A stretch of 64,000 nt of DNA, from assembly GCF_000226095.1 (NCBI RefSeq), contig NC_016472.1, positions 868,001-932,000 of the forward strand. The letters are read 5' to 3'. A program made the position numbers and the translations under genes. Origin of the DNA: Thermothelomyces thermophilus ATCC 42464. Its lineage: Eukaryota; Ascomycota; Sordariomycetes; Sordariales; Chaetomiaceae. Below, piece after piece: positions 32,931 through 63,344 of the stretch (its first letter is position 1; each line of letters opens with the position of its first letter). The notes beneath the pieces were generated by a model that saw nothing but the letters and a program-made list of their open reading frames with translations, made no database searches and was not told the DNA's origin.

Positions 32931-33661
32931 CTAGATAGGTGCTTGTGAGTGGCAAGCCGCGGCAGTAGCATCCAAAGCAAGGCAGCTGACCGTTGGGTTC
33001 TCGACAGCGTTAGCCTCAATCAATGAAGCTGCAACACCATGTGCGTGGGCAGCAGACCCAGTGGGGATTTGATCATTGGGATTTTTAGGGTTCTCGTCGC
33101 AGGATCCACAAGCGACGGGCGCATCTCTCCTGGTGTGCTCCGAAGGTGACATTATGGGAAGAGGACGTTCGTTGTGATTAAGCCCTGTCGTGTGGTCTCG
33201 AGGCCGTACGCTAGCGGACCGGTACGGTGTCTGAGCGTTTGCGACCGGGGGCGCTATCATGTGCGGAGGCGGTGGTGGGAACACACCGTGTGTTATGTAC
33301 TCTGTTCTTTGTGTGTCAAGTGGACGAGAGACCGGAGCAATACTCTATTGAAAGTCGGTTAGTATGGAGAGGATCGATGGGAGGATAGTGATGGGCGTAC
33401 TTGAGTGGAGCGTGAGAAGGGCGTGAGCAAGAGAGCAGGTTTAGCGATGTGTTTGTTATGGGTGAGGAGCGCGCTGAGATCCTCTCGCTCGAAGGTCGGC
33501 AGGCGTTGTCTGGCTCGGGGAAGAAGGGGTTGGTTCTGAAGATGGGAAGGACTGTTTTGGAGCAATGAAAGGAAAAAATCGGTATTGTTTCGATGGTGAC
33601 TTAAGGTTGTAGAGGTCGGTGTTGAAGAAGGATTGGCGCGATAGTTCTCACGATTAGTCAA
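32931..33661 (-). CDS. Weak spliced hypothetical reading frame
   Basis: Two open segments, 33661-33401 and about 33350-32931, join in frame (phase 0) if a GTACGC donor at 33400 is spliced to an AATAG acceptor just left of 33351. The product is Ser/Pro/His-rich with no known domain; fragments include DFFLSLLQNSP, LLTHNKHIAKPALLLTP and VACGSCDENPKNPND. The first segment has no ATG, only a TTG; the nearby ATG is out of frame and followed by a stop, so a further 5' exon would be needed. It may be a young or decaying gene at the edge of the repeat block, or chance. Confidence 0.25.
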
Positions 33662-34768
33662 GAGACGGGAGCCATGGTCGTGGCACCCAAGAAAGAAGGA
33701 GAGGGAAGCATTATTGGCATCAAAGCTTGCAATTCTTACCGTAAGCGAGTTCCTCTAGGTTCTTGATTCTTCCTTAGTGGCCAAGTCTTTGTCTGCCTTT
33801 AATATTTGTTTACGGAGAGGGTGCAGGTTGTAAGTAAGTTGTTGTTGAGCGCATCAATTGACTTCTTTTAAATGAGCAAGGTTCGATAGCTCGGTCCATG
33901 TAAGATTGTTGATGATCAGAGATACATTAAAGGGATACAACAGGGCATTAAACTGATAAAGCTGTGACGATAGTATCGTTCATCTAAGAAGTCATACTAT
34001 TAAAATAGGCATCTGGTTTTAACGGGAATACGTGTGACACGTTGGGAGGAGAGCTTTCTAGCTAAAGCAATAATTACCAAACGGCATGCGCACGGGTAGC
34101 GCACGGGTAGCGCACGAGTTCACTCACGCAATTAGCCTAACAGGTCAGCAAAACGGTTAGCAATATTCAAGTGTTATCCAAAGTTCATAGGAAAGCTAGT
34201 GAAATAGGCACAATTAGATTCTTTATCTTACTATGAATTTCTCATTAGTGTGGACTTTGTAGATGCAGCTACTGCTCACAGTCTTTGAAAGAGAGAGGTT
34301 ATGTGTGCATGTAGTAAAGACTTACCACAGTTGAAGAATCTACTAAATGAAACAAAAACGGGGTAATGTCCTAGCAACTCTGATATTGTTATGCTTTGTC
34401 AATGTCAGCAGAATCGACTGTTTCATTGTTCGAGATGCTTGTTCTTATCAACTCCTTGAGCATAATAAATTAGAGCTTACCTAATGCTTTGATAGCCAGA
34501 TACCTCAGTACTGATCATCCTATACTAATTAGTCTATAAGTAATCCGTATAAGTATTGCTCGCGCCCTGGAACACAGCATGACCTTTACTTCTCATAATT
34601 ATATATTATCACTTTCGTATCTGGTTCTACAGTCGGTCTCCAACTTGGAAGTCCATGATCACACCACTTTCGTCAATCTATAAGTTAGTATAGCGGTCTA
34701 GACAGACGGGAGGCGGCTGGTATACTTTTCATTTTTTTTTCGTGGTCTCTAAGGTGGCCCGTCATGGC
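33662..34768. other. Transition into the AT-rich repeat block
   Basis: Base composition drops from gene-like GC to AT-rich over this kilobase. No gene, tRNA or repeat end was recognised. A short tandem duplication (GCACGGGTA twice) is near 34090-34110. Confidence 0.5.
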
Positions 34769-35122
34769 TGTCACGGACTCGCCTCTTTTAGAAAGGGAAG
34801 TTGTTATATTGTATGTAGGCAAGTAAAGTACCAATGTTATGGTCGTCTTATCAGGAGGTTACAAAAGAAGTGTTGCAAACGTTTCTAATGCAGTACGTTG
34901 TCTACGGACGCGTCCATTATGTAAGGCTAGATAAGATAAGACCTATAGATCTGGCAAACGGGCTAGCAAACGGAGGGTTCTTTGTTCCTATCCTCTACTT
35001 ATACAGAGCCACAGGGCCAGCAAACGTAGGAAGAAGATATCGCACTTTTGAATTATTTACAACTTACCAACTTTTCCATTAATTAGAACTATCTTCCATC
35101 TATTGGAAACTATCTTCTATCA
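34769..35122 (+). repeat. Probable 5' LTR of element 0
   Basis: The segment begins TGTCACGGACTC, ends CTTCTATCA, and is followed after two bases by TGGTAGCGGAAAC at 35125, which looks like a tRNA primer-binding site. The TG...CA ends plus this site support a 5' LTR. No second copy is in the window to confirm it. Confidence 0.5.
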
Positions 35123-38894: not shown

Positions 38895-40096
38895 GACCTA
38901 AAACCTCACTTACGTTCCTTACGACGCTTAGCCTATTTAGCTTTACTATTACCTTTAGGCAAGGGCTATTTCTTAGACACCTGACGCCTTTTCTAGGCTT
39001 CTACTTCGGTATCTAGTGTATCCTAGCCTATAAACTATAGTAGGTACTTAGGAACTAGCTCTAGATCTTTAGGCCCTAAACGTTTAAATAGTAGGGGCCG
39101 AGTCTATTCAGCAGGATCATCATCAGGATGACGCTAACGAGCCTATCCTTTCTTAGCGGCTCGGGTCGAGCGTATCTCCTGTGTCTATACCGGCTCACTC
39201 GGCTTCGTCTTGGTCTAACTAGGCGGCTAACGTGTCGCTAAAGGCGCCTACTTGGCTAGTTGCTACTACTATGACCTTAAAGGCTTTCCTTATTCTTCTA
39301 TAGCTATGAGTTACTCCTCTACCTGTTCTACTACACGCTAGTAAATAGCTATCCTTAGTTTATAGGGATACTCGAGTGCCTATTAGAGTAGCTAAGGCGG
39401 CCTAAGTCCCTTAGGCGCCTTGCTGAGGAACCGCTGGACGGTATCGTCTAGGGGAACCCGACGATCCTTCTTTATAACTAATTACTCCTTTGTCAGTGGC
39501 AGGTTATCTTTTCCTTCCTCTATCTGGACGGAGATGACCGATTTGGCCCGTCCTAGCTAAGGCTATAGCTATAGAACCGGCGGCTTATGAAGTGGCTTAT
39601 CTACGGGCTACCTAGGTGGTTAATAGGGACGGACATCCCCCTAAGGGTTCTTTGGCTTCTCTAGCTAGAAAGAGCTATTGGATAGATAGCCTAAAGCCAT
39701 CTAGATTATTCTAAGCTAGAGCATTAACATCTTGTTCTTAGCCTCTATTACTTTTAGCCCTATATATAGATGGCCCTTCTGCCAGGGGAGCTTAAGCCGT
39801 ACTTTGTCTCCCTATTAGATCTCTTAGAAGTAGAAACGATAGAACTTAGTGACCTAGATACCGCATTCCTACTAGCCTTTCTGCTTTGACATCGCCTATA
39901 CTATTGGCTAGTATATATAGCCTATAGGCGGTAGAAAAAGAAAGCTTAGGAAAATGACCTTATCCTATAGAGTCTTAAATAGATCTTTTCGGCTCTGCTT
40001 ATCGGAGGGATAGGAGTCTATATAATAGAGATAGGACTCTGTCTAGTCATATATAGCTACAGCCTAGTATAACTGTCATAAGTAGCAAAGAATTAC

Positions 40097-40547
40097 TGTC
40101 ACGAGCCAACCATATACCGCGACCCGGTGGGGTGCAGCAGGCTAAATGAGCCACCAATCAAGAAGGGCACGAAGCAAGGCTGACACGGATCGCTAGGGAG
40201 CGCAGGCTACTACGGGCGAACAATTGCCAAAAGGGGAAAGATAGCAGAGGATAGCTAGCTACCAAAGGCGATCCAAGGACAGGATCGAAGAAGGCCATAA
40301 GCGATCAGGAGGAGTATATATACATGTAAATAGTCACTCGTTATAGTGGACTCTGGGAGTTCACCAGTGGTAACAATCACAATCACAGTACTCATACCGA
40401 GCATTGCTAATTACTATAAGAGACAACTCTAGTGTTGTTGTAAACCCTTTAGCTTCACCGAATCCCTCAGACGACCTGCCTGCTCGTCCCGCTCAATCTA
40501 CCTCCGTCTGGACCCTTTCAGAAGAAGTCTAAGTTAGGTTCGTCATA
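40097..40547 (+). repeat. Element 2 5' LTR
   Basis: It begins TGTCACGAGCC and ends TTCGTCATA where the 3' copy has TTCGTCACA, so its terminal CA has become TA. Confidence 0.92.
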
Positions 40548-40613
40548 CGTTGTTACCACTCCCTTTGTTCTATTATGGTTTAGAATAGAGGTGACTTCGA
40601 CCTCGATATCGAC

Positions 40614-42950
40614 ATGGCTACTAACGTCACGGCCGAACAGCTGCTCACTTAGCTTAGTTAACTCTAGCAGCGGATCTAGGAGTTGGACCAGAGAGATAAG
40701 GCTGCTTAAGCTCAAATCAAGGAACTCGAGAACCGCGAAAAGTACTTGCAGAAGTTGGTCAACGAGGCCTATGCCAAAATCGAGGCGCTCGAGACCGCTA
40801 AAGCGAGCTATATCAAGATCGAACTACCTGGCAAATACAGAGGAACTAAGGAGGATCTCGTAGGATTCTTAACAAACCTCCGATCCTACTTCCGGCTTAA
40901 TAACGACAAGTTTCCGGACGACAAAGCCAAAGTCCTCTACGTAGCTATAAGACTAGAGGGCAAGGCACTTAGATGGTTTAAGCCTATGTAGAACGACTAT
41001 CTCACTAAGGAAGACGAAGACAAATGAGACGCGTTTATGTAGGCAGTCTTCCGATCTTACGACCGTTTCGAAGAAGAGCTTTAGAAAGTTTTTAACGACA
41101 AAGACGAGAAGATTTATATACAAGAAAGACTTGCTAATCTCCGATAGACCAAGTTAGTAGCCTCTTATACTATATAGTTTAGATAGGACATGCTTAAGTC
41201 TTAGCTTAATAACGAGGCGTTAATATAATTATTCTATAACGGCTTAAAGGAAAAAGTCAAGGACAAGCTATATAAGTATAATCGGCCTAAGACTCTAGAC
41301 AAATATATCACGTAGGCCATTAAAATTAATGATTAGCTCTATACACGAGAGTAGCAGAAATGAGGTCGAACGAATGGAACTATAGTCAAGGCTAACGACA
41401 AGAAAAAGCGAACGTACGTCAGTACTTCGTATGGGACGTACCCTAGAGCTATAGATATAAATATAGCGTAGAAGCAGGACTAGAAGAAGACAACCAAAGA
41501 CAAGTCTAATATTACCTACTATAACTACAGAAAGAAAGGGCATTATAAGTAAGAATGCCAAAGCCTAAAGAAAGAGTAAAAGCCAGTCCCTAGAAAAGAA
41601 ATTACAGATATTAACGAAACTACTAAGAACGTCACCAAAGTAGCGGCTACGAGCTACAAAGACAAGGGCAGTAACATAGATAGTCTTAGATACGACGGCA
41701 ACGGTAAAGACAAACAAGCACCATACTCTAAACTAGTCACTATGAACCTAGAGACAGGTCTTGCCGAATAGGATATGGTAGGAGAATATGCACTGCCAGT
41801 TTCGATTCTCCTAGCCTTGAGGCAATGGGGTTTCATAGTTACATAGAGGCGAGATGGATCGTGGACGACCGACACCTAAGGAATCGAAAGACCCGGACCT
41901 AATGTTCTATTCCTTTAGGAACGAATCGAATGGTACTATAACGAAGTTTTCTAGCTTAATATAGAACTATGCGAACGGGATAAACGCTTGATTTGACTTA
42001 CCTAGTAGAGCGATAGAATGAGGGACAAAATGAGGGAACTCCGACATATCGTAGAAACTATTAAAGGAAAATAGCCTATGACATATAATAGGCCTAATAG
42101 CTATACTAAGTATCTTGATGGCTAGCAACTTAGTAACAACGTACAAAACCTAGAATACTAGTTTATACAAGCGAACCGCGGGAAAGACAAGCGTATATAG
42201 GAAAGCTACTAAAAGAAACACTCTTATCTTAGCATTAGAGTACCTACGGCCTATATATAGTGGGAAGGATTCGGGAAAGAATTCTAATACCTCCTAGGCG
42301 ACGCCACGTGACTGTACCCTCGACACGAGGCACATACGCAAGTGCCCTAGTTCCAGTGTATAGCATACGAATGCCGATACCACTTCTGCGACAAATTCGA
42401 AAACAATCACTAGCCGACCCGACAAGGAAATAAGGACAGAAGCTTACACCCTATGGAATGGGTCTACGATGCAGGAAACAGAGCGGCCGAATTGCTCTGG
42501 AAGATTAAAGCCTACGATCTAGAAAGCATTACGATAGTTCTAAAACGAGCCTAGCCTAGGTACTACGGGACCGGACGAGACATATAGGACTCGTGCTAGA
42601 GTAACGATTGCCTCTATTATATAGATAAAAAGAAATTACGAATTCGGGAGCTTTAGATGAAGCTATGGCACGTACGACGGAAAGTAGAATAGACCTAATA
42701 GTAGGAAGCCGTAAGCACCTAATGGTTTACGGAAATAAGCATGATTGATAAAGCCACTATTAGCCAAATAACCAAAGAGGTTAGCACTAACCTAGGAAAC
42801 AGGTTAGGGCCCTTCGAAGGGCCCGGAAACCATTAACGCCCGTGTAGTAGCAAGTGGTAGCGTAGTACAGGAGGAACTGGCGTAAGAGACCACTATACCG
42901 AGACCTCCTAGCAGAAATATAGGAAATCGCCGTAATCTTTAGACGACAGC
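40614..42950 (+). pseudogene. gag: Element 2 gag region and gag-pol junction
   Basis: ATG at 40614 opens a frame with several TAG codons. Readable blocks include a coiled-coil-like AQIKELENREKYLQKLV, then LPGKYRGTKEDLVGFLTNL and AIRLEGKALRWFKPM, typical of the gypsy capsid. A zinc knuckle of the CCHC type is at about 41515-41559, with first Cys residues changed to Tyr and an Arg-to-stop change. The capsid part ends near 41.6 kb; the following 1.3 kb reads with many stops. It is inactive as it stands. Confidence 0.8.
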
Positions 42951-45900
42951 GGCAAGACAAGCGGCTATAGATAATAGCATAATAGAAACAGCATAGAATG
43001 CTTGTACTAGTGGATAGTAGAGTAGAGATAAACCTGATCTCGCCGACGCTTGTAAATCAGCTACGGATACCCTAGAGAATGAAGCAGAAGTATAGCATAG
43101 TCAAAGGGCCATTTCTAACGTAATGGGTACATAGAGAGACCAAACTAATCGATATCACTATGGCAAGGAAGACTATAGCAGTTATATTTAGCATCGTAGA
43201 CATAGGCAATAATAAAGATATAATATTAGGGTTATTATAGTATAAAGATTATGACCCGGATATTAGCTAGAAGAATGGTAGCCACCTATGACCCTGAACG
43301 GAGTCGTATTTGACTAGCAAGATAGGGAGCGTATAAGGATCGCGAGCAGACGATGCTTAAAGAAAGGCATATCCTACGGATCTACCGTAAGAGACGGACA
43401 GTGGCAGGCAGACCACTACAGACTCTAGAAGAGGCGGTATAACGACATCGATATCGTGACAGGAGGAACGAGCTAAACCGCCGATAGCTGTTCTCTCCGT
43501 TGACAAATGCAGAGCACTGCAATTAGAGTAATAGGTTGAGATAGGAGAAATTGCTAGCATCGCTATAGACAGAACCAAGTTCGTATACTATTAGAAAACT
43601 AAGAAACGAGACAAGACTAGGGAAGTACCGAAGGAATACGAAGGATACCTAGCATTTAAATCGAAACATCTAGAAGGATTACTAGAGTATGGCCTATAGG
43701 ATTACAAGATCAAGCTTAAGGAAGGAGCACGACTAAAGTTCTTCAAGATTTACTATACAAGCTAAATATAAAATGAAGAACTTAAGCGATATTTAGAGGA
43801 GAACCTTTAAAGAGGATATATCTGCCTATCGACATCGCTAGTAGGCTACCTAATCCTATTTATACCTAAGAAAGACGGAAAGCTACGGTTATATGTCGAC
43901 TATTAGCAACTTAACGAACAGACTGTAAAAAACCGATACCTATTACCACTGATCTCACGGCTCTAAGATCAGTTAGCAGGAGCCTAATATTTCACGCGTC
44001 TTGACTTGCTATCAGCCTATAACTATATACAGATCAAAGAAGGCGACAAGTGGAAAACGGCCTTTAGGACACCCTATAGCCACTATAAGTACCTCGTCAT
44101 GCCATTCGGACTTACGAACGCGCTGGCAACGTTCTAAGCCCTGATTGATCAAGCTATCTAACCCTTTCTTGACAAATTTACGGTATATTATCTTGACGAT
44201 ATACTCATCTTCTCTAAGACGATAGACGAACACCGGAAGTACATAAAAGCAGTATTAGACGTGCTATATATATATAAACTATCAGTTAACAAAGAAAAGA
44301 GCGAATTCTACGTTAGGAAAACGGTATTTCTAGGATACGAAATATCCCTAGGACAAATCCGGATAGAACCTTCAAAGGTTAAAGCCATTAAGAATTGGCC
44401 ACGACTAACGATAATCACAGAAGTATAAAGTTTCATCGGATTTACAAACTTCTACCGAATGTTCATTAGGAACTTTGGAGTAATCGCACGACCTTTGCAC
44501 GAACTCACTAGGAAGAACGCTAAATTCCAATAGGAAGAGCAATACGAGCAAGCATTTACGAAGATTCGTAACGCCATTACTAAAGATCTAGTACTAGTAC
44601 TACCGGACCCTAAGAGGCCATTCGAGGTAGAAACGGACGCTTTAGACTACGCCATTAGAGGATAATTAGGATAACGAGACGAACAAGGGAAGCTACATCC
44701 TATAGCCTTCTTTTCAAAGAAGCTCGATAGACCACGTCTTAATTATCTGATCTACGACAAGGAACTACTTGCGATTGTTAAAGCTTTCAAGGAATGGTAA
44801 CTATACCTCAGTGGTACGATTGAACCGGTACAAGTATATACGGATCATAAGAACCTACAATACTTTATGACGATAAAGGAACTTAACGGACGACAAATAC
44901 AATGGGCAGAATTCCTCGCGGAATTTAACTTTGAGATCTGCTATAAGAAGGGCAAAGAGAACGTACAAGCGGACATCTTAAGCCGACGAACGGATCATAT
45001 AGAAGGACGAACGGAAACAATACTACCATTGTTCAAAGAACAAACAGACGGAACGCTACATTACGAAACGCAGACACCTATAGAAGATAATCTACTTGAC
45101 TCGTTCCTAGAATGCTATATAATCTTTTGAGAAGAAAGGATCAACGAGGCATAGTATTAAGTAGCACCCGGACTAGTGGTACCTAATAGAGTGGAAGAAA
45201 GAGATAGGAAACTCTAGTACCAAGGCAAAGTATATATCTACGACGGGGATCAATAGCTGCAAATGATTCGAGAACTCTACGAGTCGAAACTCGGAGGATA
45301 TAAAGGAGTTACGAAGACTGTCGCACAAGTCAAGAAACACTACGACTTTCTACAGTTAACGGCACGAGTTAAGGAAGTTATACGGAACTATGACATCTAT
45401 AATCGAAGCAAAACGGCACGACATAAGCTATATAGGCTACTTTAGCTACTACTAATAGCTAACAAACTATAGAGCTTGGTTACGATAGACTTCATTACAA
45501 AGCTGCTAGAATCTAAGGATATAGCTATAGGAGTGACCTACGACGGTATTCTCACTATAGTAGATCGCCTAACTAAATAGGCATACTTCTTTCCCTATAA
45601 GGAGTCCTAGATAGCTAAACAGCTAGCAGACGTAATCTATCGGCAAGTTATATTAGTACACGCTTGGCCGCGAGAATGGATCACCGACAGAGATACCAAG
45701 TTCGCATCGAAGTTCTGGCAAGCGTTAATATGACGATTAGGCGTCAATAGCAAGCTGTTAACGGCATACCACCTGTAGACCGACAGACAAACAGAACGAC
45801 TAAACCAAGTTATTAAGCAGTACCTCCGCTCTTACGTTAACTACCAGCAAGACGACTAGGTCATACTGTTGCCAACAATATAACTCGCCTATAATATAAC

Positions 45901-46550
45901 GCCAACAGAAACGACCAAAGTTACACCGTTCTTCGCGAACTACAGATATGAAGCAGACCTTAGGCAAGGACCAGAGGTCACAGTGCCGAGAGCAGTAGTC
46001 AAAGTAGAACAAATGTACGCACTATATAAAAAGCTTAAAAAGGAACTCGAGTTTGTCAAGACTAGAATGAAGAACTACTACGATAAACATAGGCTTGAGG
46101 GACCTTGCCTAGAGAGGGGAGACAAAGTCTACTTAATTATACGGAACTTACAAACCAAACGACCAAGTACAAAGCTAGACTTCAAGAAGGTCGGACCCTT
46201 CGTTATCAAAGAACGAATTTCGACATCTAACTACCGACTATTGTTACCGTCATCTATATACCTACGGACGGATGTTTTTCATATTTCACTTCTCGAACTA
46301 GCACCGAAAAATGCCAAGGTTGCTATACACATCGAAGTAGAAGACGAGGAAGAAGAATAGGACGTCAAAGAAATTCTGGATTTATATATTATTAACGGAG
46401 AACTATAGTACCTGGTTAAATAGCTTGATTTTAGACTAGAAGATAACTTATAGGAACTAGTCAAGAACCTAAATTGCCCTGAGAAGCTAGAGCAGTTCTA
46501 CTAGCGGAATCCTAACCGGCTATAAGAACCGGCTCCAAAGCCTATTCCCC
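42951..46550 (+). pseudogene. pol: Element 2 pol: protease, reverse transcriptase, RNase H, integrase, chromodomain
   Basis: The protease active site is near 43003-43050 (LVDSRVEINLI, with Gly replaced by Arg). Reverse transcriptase spans about 43.7-44.4 kb with [12 protein letters not shown] and an intact YYLDDILIFSK at about 44185-44220. RNase H lies at about 44.6-45.05 kb with YTDHKNLQYF and ENVQADILSRR. The integrase zinc-binding and core regions are at about 45.25-45.9 kb, and the C-terminal part at 45983-46360 contains the GPFVIKE (GPY/F) motif. A chromodomain follows at about 46365-46500 (EILDLYIINGEL ... YLVK). Numerous TAG/TAA codons break the frame, so no full polyprotein can be made. 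Its 3' end abuts, tail to tail, the reverse-strand gene at 46548-47138. Confidence 0.9.
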
Positions 46551-47138
46551 GATAGAAAAAGAAGGGAACCCGCCAGAATTAGGACCGGGATCCAACCCGA
46601 TCGACTCCTAATCAAGCACGTCAAAAGTACCTAACGCCTGAGCCTGACCCGTGAGGGTCTGCGTCTCTGATATCGGCAGAGGAGTATCTAGTTCTTCCTC
46701 TTCCTCTAGACAAGCTATACCACGACGAAAAACTTTGGTACCACGATCGCGCAGGGATTGCTGTAAACGACGTAATTGACTCAAATGGCTTAGTGTCTAA
46801 GCAAGTAGCGCCTTAGTCTTAGTAATCTCTTTCGAAACCTTCTCCTGCTCTGACAAATTTGAAAGGACTAAGACAGTTAGCAACCTAAGATTATAAAGGA
46901 AAACCACAAGGAACCTACAGGCATCCGTAACGTTCGGACCACTGCACTTCTTGCCTATGCAAATACAATTTTGACACTTGTTCAAACCCTCCATCATCAT
47001 ACAACGCTTCCACGGCTTCACATTCTAATAACGCTCGCAAGGCATGGCGACTTCGTAACCCTCTCGCTCAATCTTGATCGCAATAGCGTGTCGTTCGCGC
47101 TTAAGATCGCGACGATTCCTAAGAATACGATCAGCCAT
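46548..47138 (-). pseudogene. Element 2 antisense gene: Cys-rich plus coiled-coil protein
   Basis: ATG at 47138 has a strong context (CGCCATGGC). It opens a frame on the strand opposite to gag-pol that stays open except for TAG codons at places where Trp or Gln is expected. Exon 1 (47138-46919) gives a basic N-terminus (MADRILRNRRDLKRERH) and a Cys-rich stretch (MPCERY ... KRCMMMEGLNKCQNC ... KKCSG) resembling a compact zinc-binding cluster. An intron (46868-46918) has a GTAGGT donor, a CTAAC branch site and a TTAG acceptor. Exon 2 gives a heptad-like helical region (LSEQEKVSKEITKTKALL ... SHLSQLRRLQQSLRDRG), then FRRGIACLEEEEELD and a C-terminal DVLD-stop-ESIGLD. The frame closes near 46548. 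The same layout recurs in elements 3 and 4. Function is unknown; nucleic-acid binding or regulation of the element is speculation. Confidence 0.75.
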
Positions 47139-47219: not shown

Positions 47220-47236
47220 GCTTTCGGGTCGAAAGC
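47220..47236. repeat. Stem-loop beside the element 2 polypurine tract
   Basis: GCTTTCG, GGT, CGAAAGC forms a 7-bp stem. It lies 18 bp before the 3' LTR and upstream of the antisense gene start. The same stem-loop is present in elements 3 and 4. Confidence 0.8.
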
Positions 47237-47254: not shown

Positions 47255-47705
47255 TGTCACGAGCCAACCATATACTGCAACCCGGTAGGGTGCAGCAGGC
47301 TGAATGAGCTACCAATCAAGAAGGGCACGAAGCAAGGCTAACACGGATCGCTAGGGAGCGCAGGCTACCACAGGCGAACAATTGCCAAAAGGGGAAAGAT
47401 AGCAGAGGATAGCTAGCTACCAAAGGCGATCCAAGGACAGGATCGAAGAAGGCTATAAGCGATCAGGAGGAGTATATATATATATAAATAGTCACTCGTT
47501 ATGGTGGACTCTAGGAGTTCACTAGTGGTAACAATCACAATCACAGTACTCATACCGAGCATTGCTGATTACTGTGAGAGACAACTCTAGTGTTGTTGTG
47601 AACCCTTTGGCTTCACCAAATCCCTCAGACGACCTGCCTGCTCGTCCCGCTCAATCTACCTCCGTCTGGACCCTTTTAGAAGAAGTCTGAGTTGGGTTCG
47701 TCACA
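47255..47705 (+). repeat. Element 2 3' LTR
   Basis: TGTCACGAGCC to TTCGTCACA, 451 bp, preceded by the purine tract AAAGAGGGGG and followed by ATTAC. Confidence 0.93.
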
Positions 47706-48249
47706 ATTACCTAGAATCGTTTTCTAGCCGCGTCCTTCTATTTTTATAGAGGCAATACTAACTACTTAGGCTTCAAGTCGCTAATAGCCTCTAGAAAGAT
47801 ATAGACGTATAGCTTGTAAGACACTAACGTATACCAAAGCAGGTTTAGGAGGTCGTAGCCGTTTAGGTACTCCTTTCTTAATATAAGCCCTTTAATATTA
47901 TATAGGCTTATGGCAATATTATACTAACGCTAGCCAAAGTATATCTTCCCTTAGCCACGCGGCCTAGTATATAAGAGAAATAGGTAGCTAACGATTCGCT
48001 CGTTAGTCTCGAGACTAGGACTTATAAGCCACTCTAGCCTTCTAGTTAACACTTCCCTAGGATAGGGAGTAGGCCTTATATACGGCTCGTTAAAGAGCTT
48101 CTAGGTGTTGCTACTCCCTAGGTAGTTGGCGATTTCTTCCCCTAGAACCTAAGTCGCAAGGAGGTACCAAAGAAAGAGCCTTAGGGTTTCGGGATCTTCT
48201 CCCGGAAGGAGTAAAGGTAGTCCTATACTCGGTTAGCTTGGCCCTCTAG

Positions 48250-48682
48250 TGTCACGGAAATATGTATGCAGATGCCGCCTGAGCCACTGGCACAAACGGG
48301 CCAATCAAGCTGAAGGAATGATAGACCAATCAGGACAGGATCACACTTGGCAAGGAATGATCCCAGCAGAGGATCACTGGCTCACGACATGAGCCAGGTA
48401 AGCCAGTATAGAGGATCACCACGACTGCTAGTGATCCTAGGATTATATATATATGTAGATAGTCACTCGTTACGGTGGACTCTGAGAGTTCACCAGTGAT
48501 AGCAACCCTCACAATCACAGTACTTATACTAAGCACCGTTGTTGACTACTGTGAGAGATAACCCTAGTGTTGTTGTGAACCCTTTGGCTTCACCGAATCC
48601 CTCAGACGACCTGCCTGCTTGTCCCGCTCAATCCACCTTCGTCTGAACCCTTTCAGAAGAAGTCTGAGTTGGGTTCGTCACA
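48250..48682 (+). mobile_element. Solo LTR, 433 bp
   Basis: TGTCACGGAAAT to TTCGTCACA with a 5-bp target duplication TCTAG (48245-48249 and 48683-48687). It is the same LTR family as elements 3 and 4 in the opposite orientation, and is the product of recombination between two LTRs. It is inserted in element 1 sequence. Confidence 0.92.
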
Positions 48683-58600: not shown

Positions 58601-59018
58601 TATAACAAACCTAACTTAGACTTCTTCTAAAAGGGTTCGGACGAAGGTAGATTAAGTAGGACAAGCAGACAGGTCGTCTAAGGGATTCGGTAAAGCCAAA
58701 GGGTTTATAACAACACTAGAGTTATCTCTTATAGTAATTAGCAATGCTTGGTATAAGTACTATGATTATAGGTTACTATCACTGGTAAACTCTTAGAGTC
58801 TACCTAACGAGTGACTATCTATATATATATATAATCCTAATGATTACTCCTAATTACGGTGATCGTAAGTGATCGTATAGTGGTGATCACCCTAATCGCT
58901 AGTGAGCGTAGTGATCACTATGCTTTCCATGTTGTAATTGGTCCTTTCGTTCCTTCGGCTTGATTGGCCCGTTTATACTGGTAGTCTAGGTGGTATCCAT
59001 ATATATATTTCTATAATA
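58601..59018 (-). repeat. Element 3 3' LTR
   Basis: It matches 62926-63344 and, in reverse orientation, the solo LTR. It starts TATAACAAACC for an expected TGTGACGAACC, so it is heavily RIP-altered. Confidence 0.88.
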
Positions 59019-62925: not shown

Positions 62926-63344
62926 TATAACAAACCTAACTTAGACTTCTTCTAAAAGGGTCCAGACGGAGGTAGGTAAAGCGGGACAAGCGTGCAGGTC
63001 GTCTGAGGGATTCGGTAAAGCCAAAGGGTTCATAACAACACTTAGAGTTGTCTCTCACAGTAGTTAGCAATGCTTGGTATAAGTACTGTGATTGTGATTG
63101 TTACCACTGGTGAACTCCTAGAGTCTACCATAACAAGTGACTATCTACATGTATATATAATCCTAGTGATCATTCCTGATTACGGTGATCGTGAGTGATC
63201 GCATGGCGGTGATCACCCTGATCACTGGTGAGCGTAGTAATCACTATGCTTCCTATGCTATAATTGGTCCTTTCGTTCCTTCGACTTGATTAGCCCATTC
63301 GTGCTAGTGGCTTAGGCAGCATCTACATGTATATTTCCGTGATA
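62926..63344 (-). repeat. Element 4 3' LTR
   Basis: 419 bp, ending TTCCGTGATA, followed by CGATGCCCTCC, the reverse complement of the polypurine tract. Its U3 part (about 63166-63240) holds a cluster of TGATC/GATCA units. Confidence 0.9.

What the first reader, a model, noticed from the sequence alone, without database searches (positions are those of the whole stretch)
46548..47138. A spliced gene on the opposite strand to gag-pol inside a chromovirus
Between pol and the 3' LTR of element 2 the minus strand holds an ATG in a strong context. About 190 codons follow, broken only by TAGs where Trp or Gln is expected. There is an intron with a proper donor, CTAAC branch site and acceptor, a Cys-rich segment and a coiled-coil-like region. 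Ty3/gypsy elements normally encode only gag and pol on the sense strand, so an antisense gene pointing inward from the 3' LTR is unusual and could regulate the element or its chromatin.
Basis: partly seen in the sequence, partly recalled or inferred. Interest (0 to 1): 0.85.

Follow-up and report, generated by a model that had tools for sequence, protein, structure and literature searches.

The report
Swappable antisense regulator gene in retrotransposon
A fungal jumping gene carries, on its opposite strand, an extra gene that looks like a DNA-binding switch, and this gene and the element's own promoter differ together between copies that are otherwise nearly identical.

Summary
Element 2 (Thermothelomyces thermophilus ATCC 42464) carries a minus-strand, two-exon gene between pol and the 3' LTR: 47138-46461 (not ending at 46548), intron 46918-46868. 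Five TAG stops break this copy; all 30 copies of its type examined, this one included, are broken, by RIP-like transitions. Other families in the genome show stop-free versions (15 and 18 places), related genera have homologues, and between two types selection outside the pol overlap is purifying. The kind is not new: Boty 'brtn' and plant Grande/RIRE2/Retand have antisense genes there. What I found nowhere described in my searches: (1) the product joins a six-cysteine cluster (DUF3716/Zn2Cys6-like) to a long coiled coil; the 14 weak Foldseek matches of two models are Zn2Cys6 regulators; (2) between five types pol is nearly identical (0.002-0.007 transversions/site), but antisense gene (0.14-0.34) and U3 promoter (0.15-0.37) are highly diverged, and their types agree in 73 of 73 elements of multi-copy types; (3) U3s hold repeated, mostly GATC-cored sites with type-specific flanks (weakest in the window's own type). 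I read it as a regulator-plus-operator module exchanged on a common backbone. DNA binding is inferred, not shown.

The parts
46919..47138 (-). antisense gene, exon 1: basic N-terminus and six-Cys region (C-X2-C-X8-C-X8-C-X2-C-X6-C in this type)
   Evidence: translation and homologues; Cys at codons 34, 37, 46, 55, 58, 65 kept in 12-27 of 30 copies, Tyr in the rest
46868..46918 (-). intron, 51 nt, phase 1, GT-AG with GCTAAC branch-like motif
   Evidence: residues absent from five named gene models; introns at the same place in types T3 (66 nt) and T4 (47 nt), splice sites there chosen by eye
46461..46867 (-). antisense gene, exon 2: long coiled coil, acidic stretch, C-terminal tail; the last ~41 codons overlap the end of pol
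   Evidence: helix in the models of two homologues; terminal stop; overlap
40600..46501 (+). gag-pol of element 2, decayed; ends in a chromodomain (46316-46501); start approximate
   Evidence: SH3_Tf2-1 in the window's own ORF and Chromo in the intact relative L044
47220..47254 (+). hairpin (GCTTTCG..CGAAAGC) and polypurine tract before the 3' LTR
   Evidence: read; the segment aligns between types
40097..40330 (+). 5' LTR, U3 part, type T1
40331..40547 (+). 5' LTR, R-U5 part, shared by all types
47255..47488 (+). 3' LTR, U3 part, type T1: lies directly upstream of the antisense gene
47427..47445 (.). CGATCC-N7-GGATCG inverted repeat in U3; further GATC sites at 47346 and 47461
   Evidence: read; GATC 4 in this U3 type against 0.97 expected, 4 of 1000 shuffles as high; word repeats as a whole not significant in this type
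47489..47705 (+). 3' LTR, R-U5 part
   Evidence: target-site duplication ATTAC at 40092-40096 and 47706-47710 read
48250..48682 (+). LTR of another type (T5), apparently solo, with GGATCAC/GTGATCC sites
   Evidence: 93% to U3 of type T5 over 207 nt

Best explanation
The antisense gene encodes a small dimeric DNA-binding regulator: a six-cysteine metal cluster, a coiled coil, and an acidic/aromatic tail. It most likely binds the repeated, mostly GATC-cored half-sites in the U3 of its own element and so controls the LTR promoter. The gene starts just outside U3 of the 3' LTR, so one region can control the antisense gene on one side and, in the 5' LTR, gag-pol. Regulator gene and U3 form a module that is exchanged on a common R-U5-gag-pol backbone, giving co-resident families with different specificities, comparable to the repressor/operator regions of heteroimmune phages. 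SHOWN here: gene, intron position, homologues, selection between types, the co-divergence of gene and U3, the repeats in U3. INFERRED: metal binding, dimerisation, DNA binding, that U3 is the target, and whether it activates or represses. Rough step probabilities (my judgement): real protein-coding gene 0.97; nuclear DNA-binding regulator 0.7; acts on its own U3 0.5; net effect repression or self-limitation rather than activation 0.5.
For: Gene real: homologues in other genera; in the same genome stop-free matched frames at 15 (T2) and 18 (T3, exon 2 part) places (14 of the 15 and 7 of the 18 were fetched and typed); T3-T4 pS 0.736 against pN 0.375, differences by codon position 60/51/99, with the last 45 codons left out (pol overlap there is 41 codons; leaving out 70 or 85 codons gives the same picture). 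Fold: two short helices in the Cys region and one long helix in both models (pLDDT 78 and 84); Foldseek against PDB gives 6 matches (Ppr1, AlcR, Leu3 x3, Put3) and 8 matches (Pho7 x2, Gal4, Put3, Hap1, Leu3 x2, a CBF3 chain), all of the Zn2Cys6 class (class membership mostly recalled; for CBF3 I recall Cep3), E 0.57-9.4; profile A2 against PDB sequences puts Put3 first, E 0.0055, over cluster and coil. Module: between five types pol differs by 0.002-0.007 transversions per site, the cassette by 0.14-0.34, U3 by 0.15-0.37. U3 type and cassette type agree in 66 of 66 records (58 distinct elements) and in the 15 of 16 further elements that belong to multi-copy types. Operators: U3 word-pair repeats exceed all 500 shuffles in T2, T2b, T3, T4 and T5; GATC is the most over-represented U3 tetramer, 36 against 10.1 expected, maximum of 1000 shuffles 21, and 0 in R of 7 types. 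T4 half-sites alternate every 18 and 16 nt.
Confidence: 0.5

Rival explanations
1. Linkage only: the 3' end of the element (cassette plus U3) is exchanged as one block by template switching between diverged lineages. U3 diverges because promoters evolve fast or must escape silencing, and the antisense protein does something else, for example a nuclear or nucleic-acid chaperone role in the retrotransposition cycle.
For: The two parts are adjacent; mixed ancestry of the U3 in T6; U3 repeats not significant as words in T1; no direct evidence of binding.
Against: Most U3 types hold repeated, partly dyad-symmetric sites with type-specific flanks, as expected of a cognate binder; the predicted fold is that of transcription factors.
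Confidence: 0.3
2. Captured host gene acting on the host: the Cys region derives from the fungal DUF3716 family and the protein serves as an anti-silencing or host-gene-directed factor.
For: Profile-profile match to five host DUF3716 stretches (probability 77%, score 29.3 against at most 14.6 in 30 column shuffles); five DUF3716 places over the cut-off in the genome.
Against: The DUF3716 Pfam cut-off is not reached (15.1 of 22 bits); all 30 T1 copies looked at are broken by RIP-like changes, so no general protection is seen; a gene of this family is in all 74 elements looked at (52 of them chosen for it, 22 not), so it is no occasional cargo.
Confidence: 0.12
3. The antisense frame is a by-product of pol coding on the other strand, not a gene.
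For: The last 41 codons (65 in T2) overlap the end of pol; LTR elements often show mirror frames; one sense frame is stop-free across the T3 gene.
Against: Most of the gene lies outside pol; intron position is conserved; the protein is conserved between genera and under purifying selection with the overlap left out; no sense frame is stop-free in all types.
Confidence: 0.03

Closest known systems
brtn of Boty-like retrotransposons (Botrytis cinerea; Zhao et al. 2011)
   Same: Fungal chromodomain-bearing LTR element with an additional antisense gene (PMC4227169 passages); PMC7264820 counts it among the antisense ORFs between pol and 3' LTR.
aORF-3R genes of plant Ty3/gypsy elements (Grande gene23, RIRE2, Retand ORF4, PvRetro13)
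   Same: Position, orientation, presence in most copies, function unknown; GENE23 is nuclear (PMC7264820).
   Different: Plant elements; no similarity of product was tested; here the gene and U3 diverge together.
HBZ, antisense gene of HTLV-1
   Same: Spliced antisense gene started from the 3' LTR end, encoding a coiled-coil nuclear regulator (recalled; PMC7264820 mentions only the HTLV antisense promoter).
   Different: bZIP, not a Cys cluster; retrovirus; not exchanged together with U3 as far as I know.
Zn2Cys6 (Gal4/Put3-type) regulators of fungi
   Same: Six-Cys cluster followed by a coiled coil; the Foldseek matches of both models.
   Different: Below the Pfam cut-off; small protein without a large C-terminal domain; U3 motif is mostly GATC-cored, not CGG.
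DUF3716 (PF12511)
   Same: Best profile match of the Cys region including the preceding G....PC..C pattern.
   Different: Below the Pfam cut-off; host genes; whether they have a coiled coil was not examined; function unknown.
Immunity regions of lambdoid phages
   Same: Regulator gene and its target region vary together on a shared genome (works like; recalled).
   Different: Only an analogy; no kinship and no repression shown.

Membership tests
Antisense additional ORF of LTR retrotransposons (aORF-3R) | lies between pol and 3' LTR, opposite strand to gag-pol | tested here: met
Antisense additional ORF of LTR retrotransposons (aORF-3R) | present in most copies of the family | tested here: met
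   a cassette of this kind in 74 of 74 3' ends looked at; of the 28 records taken by chromodomain alone 28 of 28 (22 of them not fetched otherwise)
Antisense additional ORF of LTR retrotransposons (aORF-3R) | conserved as protein | tested here: met
Antisense additional ORF of LTR retrotransposons (aORF-3R) | transcribed antisense | not testable with these tools
   no RNA data
BRTN homologue | sequence similarity to BRTN | not tested
   no hit bears that name; the paper is not held
Zn_clus PF00172 (Zn2Cys6) | Pfam score over cut-off | tested here: not met
   12.8 bits at best, cut-off 21
Zn_clus PF00172 (Zn2Cys6) | C-X2-C-X6-C-X5-12-C-X2-C-X6-8-C spacing (recalled) | tested here: inconclusive
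   T3 fits (C-X2-C-X6-C-X8-C-X2-C-X6-C); T1 has X8 and T2 X7 in the first half
Zn_clus PF00172 (Zn2Cys6) | two helix-loop halves, fold match | tested here: inconclusive
DUF3716 PF12511 | Pfam score over cut-off | tested here: not met
   15.1 bits, cut-off 22
DUF3716 PF12511 | profile-profile similarity | tested here: inconclusive
   probability 77% on one pair, 30 shuffles all lower
Chromovirus (Ty3/gypsy with chromodomain) | chromodomain at the end of pol, LTRs, target-site duplication | tested here: met
   Chromo PF00385 56 bits in the intact relative and a 77% match in the window copy; LTRs; TSD ATTAC (read)
Phage-type immunity module (analogy) | resident regulator represses incoming element of same type only | not testable with these tools
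   needs experiment

The most novel reading that the evidence does not exclude
Retrotransposon heteroimmunity: each element type encodes, antisense, its own DNA-binding regulator that recognises only the operator array in its own U3. Exchange of the regulator-plus-U3 module on a common gag-pol backbone creates new 'immunity groups', letting a new type spread in a genome where older types are shut off. This would explain why two young, intact families (T2, T3) with 96.5% identical backbones coexist here.
Probability: 0.3. Interest if true: 0.9.

Novelty: new variant of a known kind. Interest (0 to 1): 0.72.

Why it matters
The role of antisense genes between pol and the 3' LTR is open in plants and fungi (PMC7264820 says it is not known). 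Here sequence gives a concrete, testable proposal: a Cys-cluster/coiled-coil protein with a candidate target, the repeated sites in the element's own U3, and a natural series of seven gene/U3 types on nearly one backbone to test specificity. If true, retrotransposons would have regulator/operator modules and mutual exclusion groups like temperate phages.

Tried and rejected
Rejected: mirror frame of pol (most of the gene lies outside pol; purifying selection with the overlap left out). Selection within T1 copies could not be tested: variation there is RIP-like. Pfam gave no family over cut-off; coiled-coil hits below cut-off were ignored. Literature: 'DUF3716' 0 papers; Zn2Cys6 + LTR retrotransposon + antisense + gypsy 0; additional open reading frame + Ty3 + fungal + antisense + zinc + LTR 0; one hit for U3 region + modular evolution (PMC3601003, listing only); M. 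thermophila + gypsy + LTR 5 papers, listing only. Fungal genomes other than the window's own could not be searched; the unnamed P0025-P0038 proteins may or may not be BRTN relatives. A second PDB profile search weakened the Put3 match. T1 and T6 word repeats in U3 are not or only marginally significant, and T5's top repeated word is not GATC-cored. Among the control stretches, R of T3 (7-mers, p 0.042) and the second cassette stretch of T1 (p 0.028-0.036 in two of four tests) fell below 0.05. T2-T2b selection is weak (pS 0.54, pN 0.31 with 70 codons left out) and T2b is RIP-damaged.

Full report
1. What is there. The window is G000:C1:868001-932000 of a 38.7-Mb, 7-contig genome. Named proteins on contigs of the same lengths identify it as Thermothelomyces thermophilus ATCC 42464 (Chaetomiaceae). 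Element 2 has LTRs at 40097-40547 and 47255-47705 with the target-site duplication ATTAC. It is heavily transition-mutated in a RIP-like way. Between the chromodomain end (46501) and the 3' LTR the minus strand holds the gene of the finding, 47138-46461, with an intron at 46918-46868; its last 41 nt overlap the chromodomain. The copy is broken by five TAGs; intact relatives exist.

2. Is it a gene? A search with the protein of a sister copy found 10 proteins, a profile search 25, among them named proteins of Thermothelomyces, Canariomyces, Parathielavia, Corynascus and Parachaetomium (all Chaetomiaceae). In one search only the 7997 candidates sharing most words were scored, so the list may be short. 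One more search from a distant hit found 14 including itself, none with an organism name. In the same genome, P0025 as query lists matches without stops at 15 places in one frame size (T2) and 18 in another (T3, exon 2 part); I fetched and typed 14 of the 15 and 7 of the 18. The T2 and T3 elements L043 and L044 have identical LTR pairs (415 of 415 and 449 of 449 nt) with gag and pol open on the other strand. T3 against T4, last 45 codons left out (pol overlap 41 codons): pS 0.736, pN 0.375, differences at codon positions 60/51/99; with 70 or 85 codons left out 0.711/0.409 and 0.731/0.406. dS is near saturation, so a ratio (about 0.17) is rough. T2 against T2b, 70 codons left out because the T2 overlap is 65: pS 0.54, pN 0.31, T2b being RIP-damaged. 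No sense frame is stop-free in all types, though one is in T3. The T1 copies cannot show selection: 275 variable columns are transition-only, 2 hold a transversion.

3. The module. L043 (T2) and L044 (T3) are 96.5% identical over 6208 nt from R-U5 through pol, but most of U3 (the first ~200 nt of the LTR) and the antisense cassette do not align. I parsed 66 3' ends; 8 are repeats of the same element (my comparison of coordinates), leaving 58. Sixteen more give 74 distinct elements: T1 30, T2 17, T2b 4, T3 15, T4 3, T5 4, T6 1. How they were chosen: 30 by T1 cassette DNA, 22 by antisense-protein hits, 22 new ones by the chromodomain alone. U3 type and cassette type, assigned separately, agree in 66 of 66 records. 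In one search seven of eight agree and one (L071) fits no reference; four of the eight new ones agree and four fit no reference. Of these five, L071, L074, L076 and L077 form T5 in both parts and L075 is a single-copy type, T6. So 73 of 73 elements of multi-copy types agree. With transversions only, which RIP does not make, T1, T2, T2b, T3 and T4 differ by 0.002-0.007 per site in 1.2 kb of pol (within T1: 0.005), 0.008-0.040 in R, 0-0.13 in the short PPT segment, but 0.14-0.34 in the cassette and 0.15-0.37 in U3, where the alignment itself is near its limit. A protein tree, rooted at its midpoint, puts T1 with proteins of other genera and T2 and T3/T4 outside: the types look older than these genera, or moved between them, while the backbone is shared. 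Against a neat picture: T6 has a T1-like protein while the first ~85 nt of its U3 resemble T4 and T5.

4. The U3 sites. T2 repeats GATCGCA, T2b GGATCATTA/AATGATCC, T3 TTATCACC/GGTGATAA, T4 GGATCAC/GTGATCC with half-sites at 92, 110, 126, 144, 160 and 178 of U3, T1 CGATCC-N7-GGATCG. Word-pair repeats exceed all of 500 dinucleotide shuffles in T2, T2b, T3, T4 and T5, not in T1 (p 0.14-0.22) and hardly in T6 (0.03, 0.35); in T5 the commonest repeated word is TGAGCCA. Of the R, pol and cassette controls only R of T3 and one cassette stretch of T1 fell below 0.05. GATC, chosen after looking, occurs 36 times in the seven U3s against 10.1 expected (maximum 21 in 1000 shuffles) and ranks first of all tetramers; 4 against 0.97 in T1, 0 in T3; it never occurs in R of the seven. 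CCAAT- and TATA-like words also recur and look like ordinary promoter parts.

6. How it likely works. A dimer binding dyad sites in U3 fits cluster, coil and sites. U3 lies directly upstream of the antisense gene (3' LTR) and should drive gag-pol (5' LTR), so the protein could control both. Activation or repression cannot be told. Linkage alone could explain the co-divergence; the type-specific repeats argue for a functional pair.

7. Known or new. [quoted passage not shown] Grande, RIRE2, Retand, PvRetro13; PMC7264820 parts 1-2 of 3 read; PMC8365987, PMC4227169 and PMC5987419 passages only; Zhao 2011 not seen). In some searches (listings) I found no description of a Zn2Cys6/DUF3716-like product or of joint exchange with U3; these searches cover open-licence papers only.

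Noticed in passing
G000, e.g. L043, L044 (T2, T3 families): Two LTR-element families with identical LTR pairs (in the one copy of each checked) and no visible RIP damage sit in a genome with many heavily RIP-mutated copies: recently active, or moved while RIP was idle.
   Followed up: partly
window 47220-47236: A hairpin (CTTTCG..CGAAAG stem) just before the polypurine tract, read in all types looked at, with an extra base pair in T2/T2b; not tested statistically.
   Followed up: no
window 58605-59011 and 62930-63342, minus strand: Two more LTRs of the same family whose U3s match T5/T6 only in part (77-84% over 75-97 nt): probably further U3 types.
   Followed up: no
L043:5964-8267 and L044:2149-4452: The gag frame (767 codons stop to stop) runs some 400 residues past its CCHC knuckle and overlaps pol in another frame, so there is an extra region of unknown role and probably a frameshift.
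   Followed up: no
G000:C6:2254089, C3:3555664, C1:10601245, C7:1433275, C3:154676: Five host places with DUF3716, a family with no paper in the library searched, resembling the element protein's Cys region.
   Followed up: partly
window, about 33000-35000: Base composition falls from about 56% to 32-45% GC: the right half looks like a RIP-mutated repeat island.
   Followed up: no
L044 intron of the antisense gene: The intron of the T3 antisense gene carries a long T run; L044 and L062 differ there, and T3 cassettes differ in length (671-686 nt).
   Followed up: no
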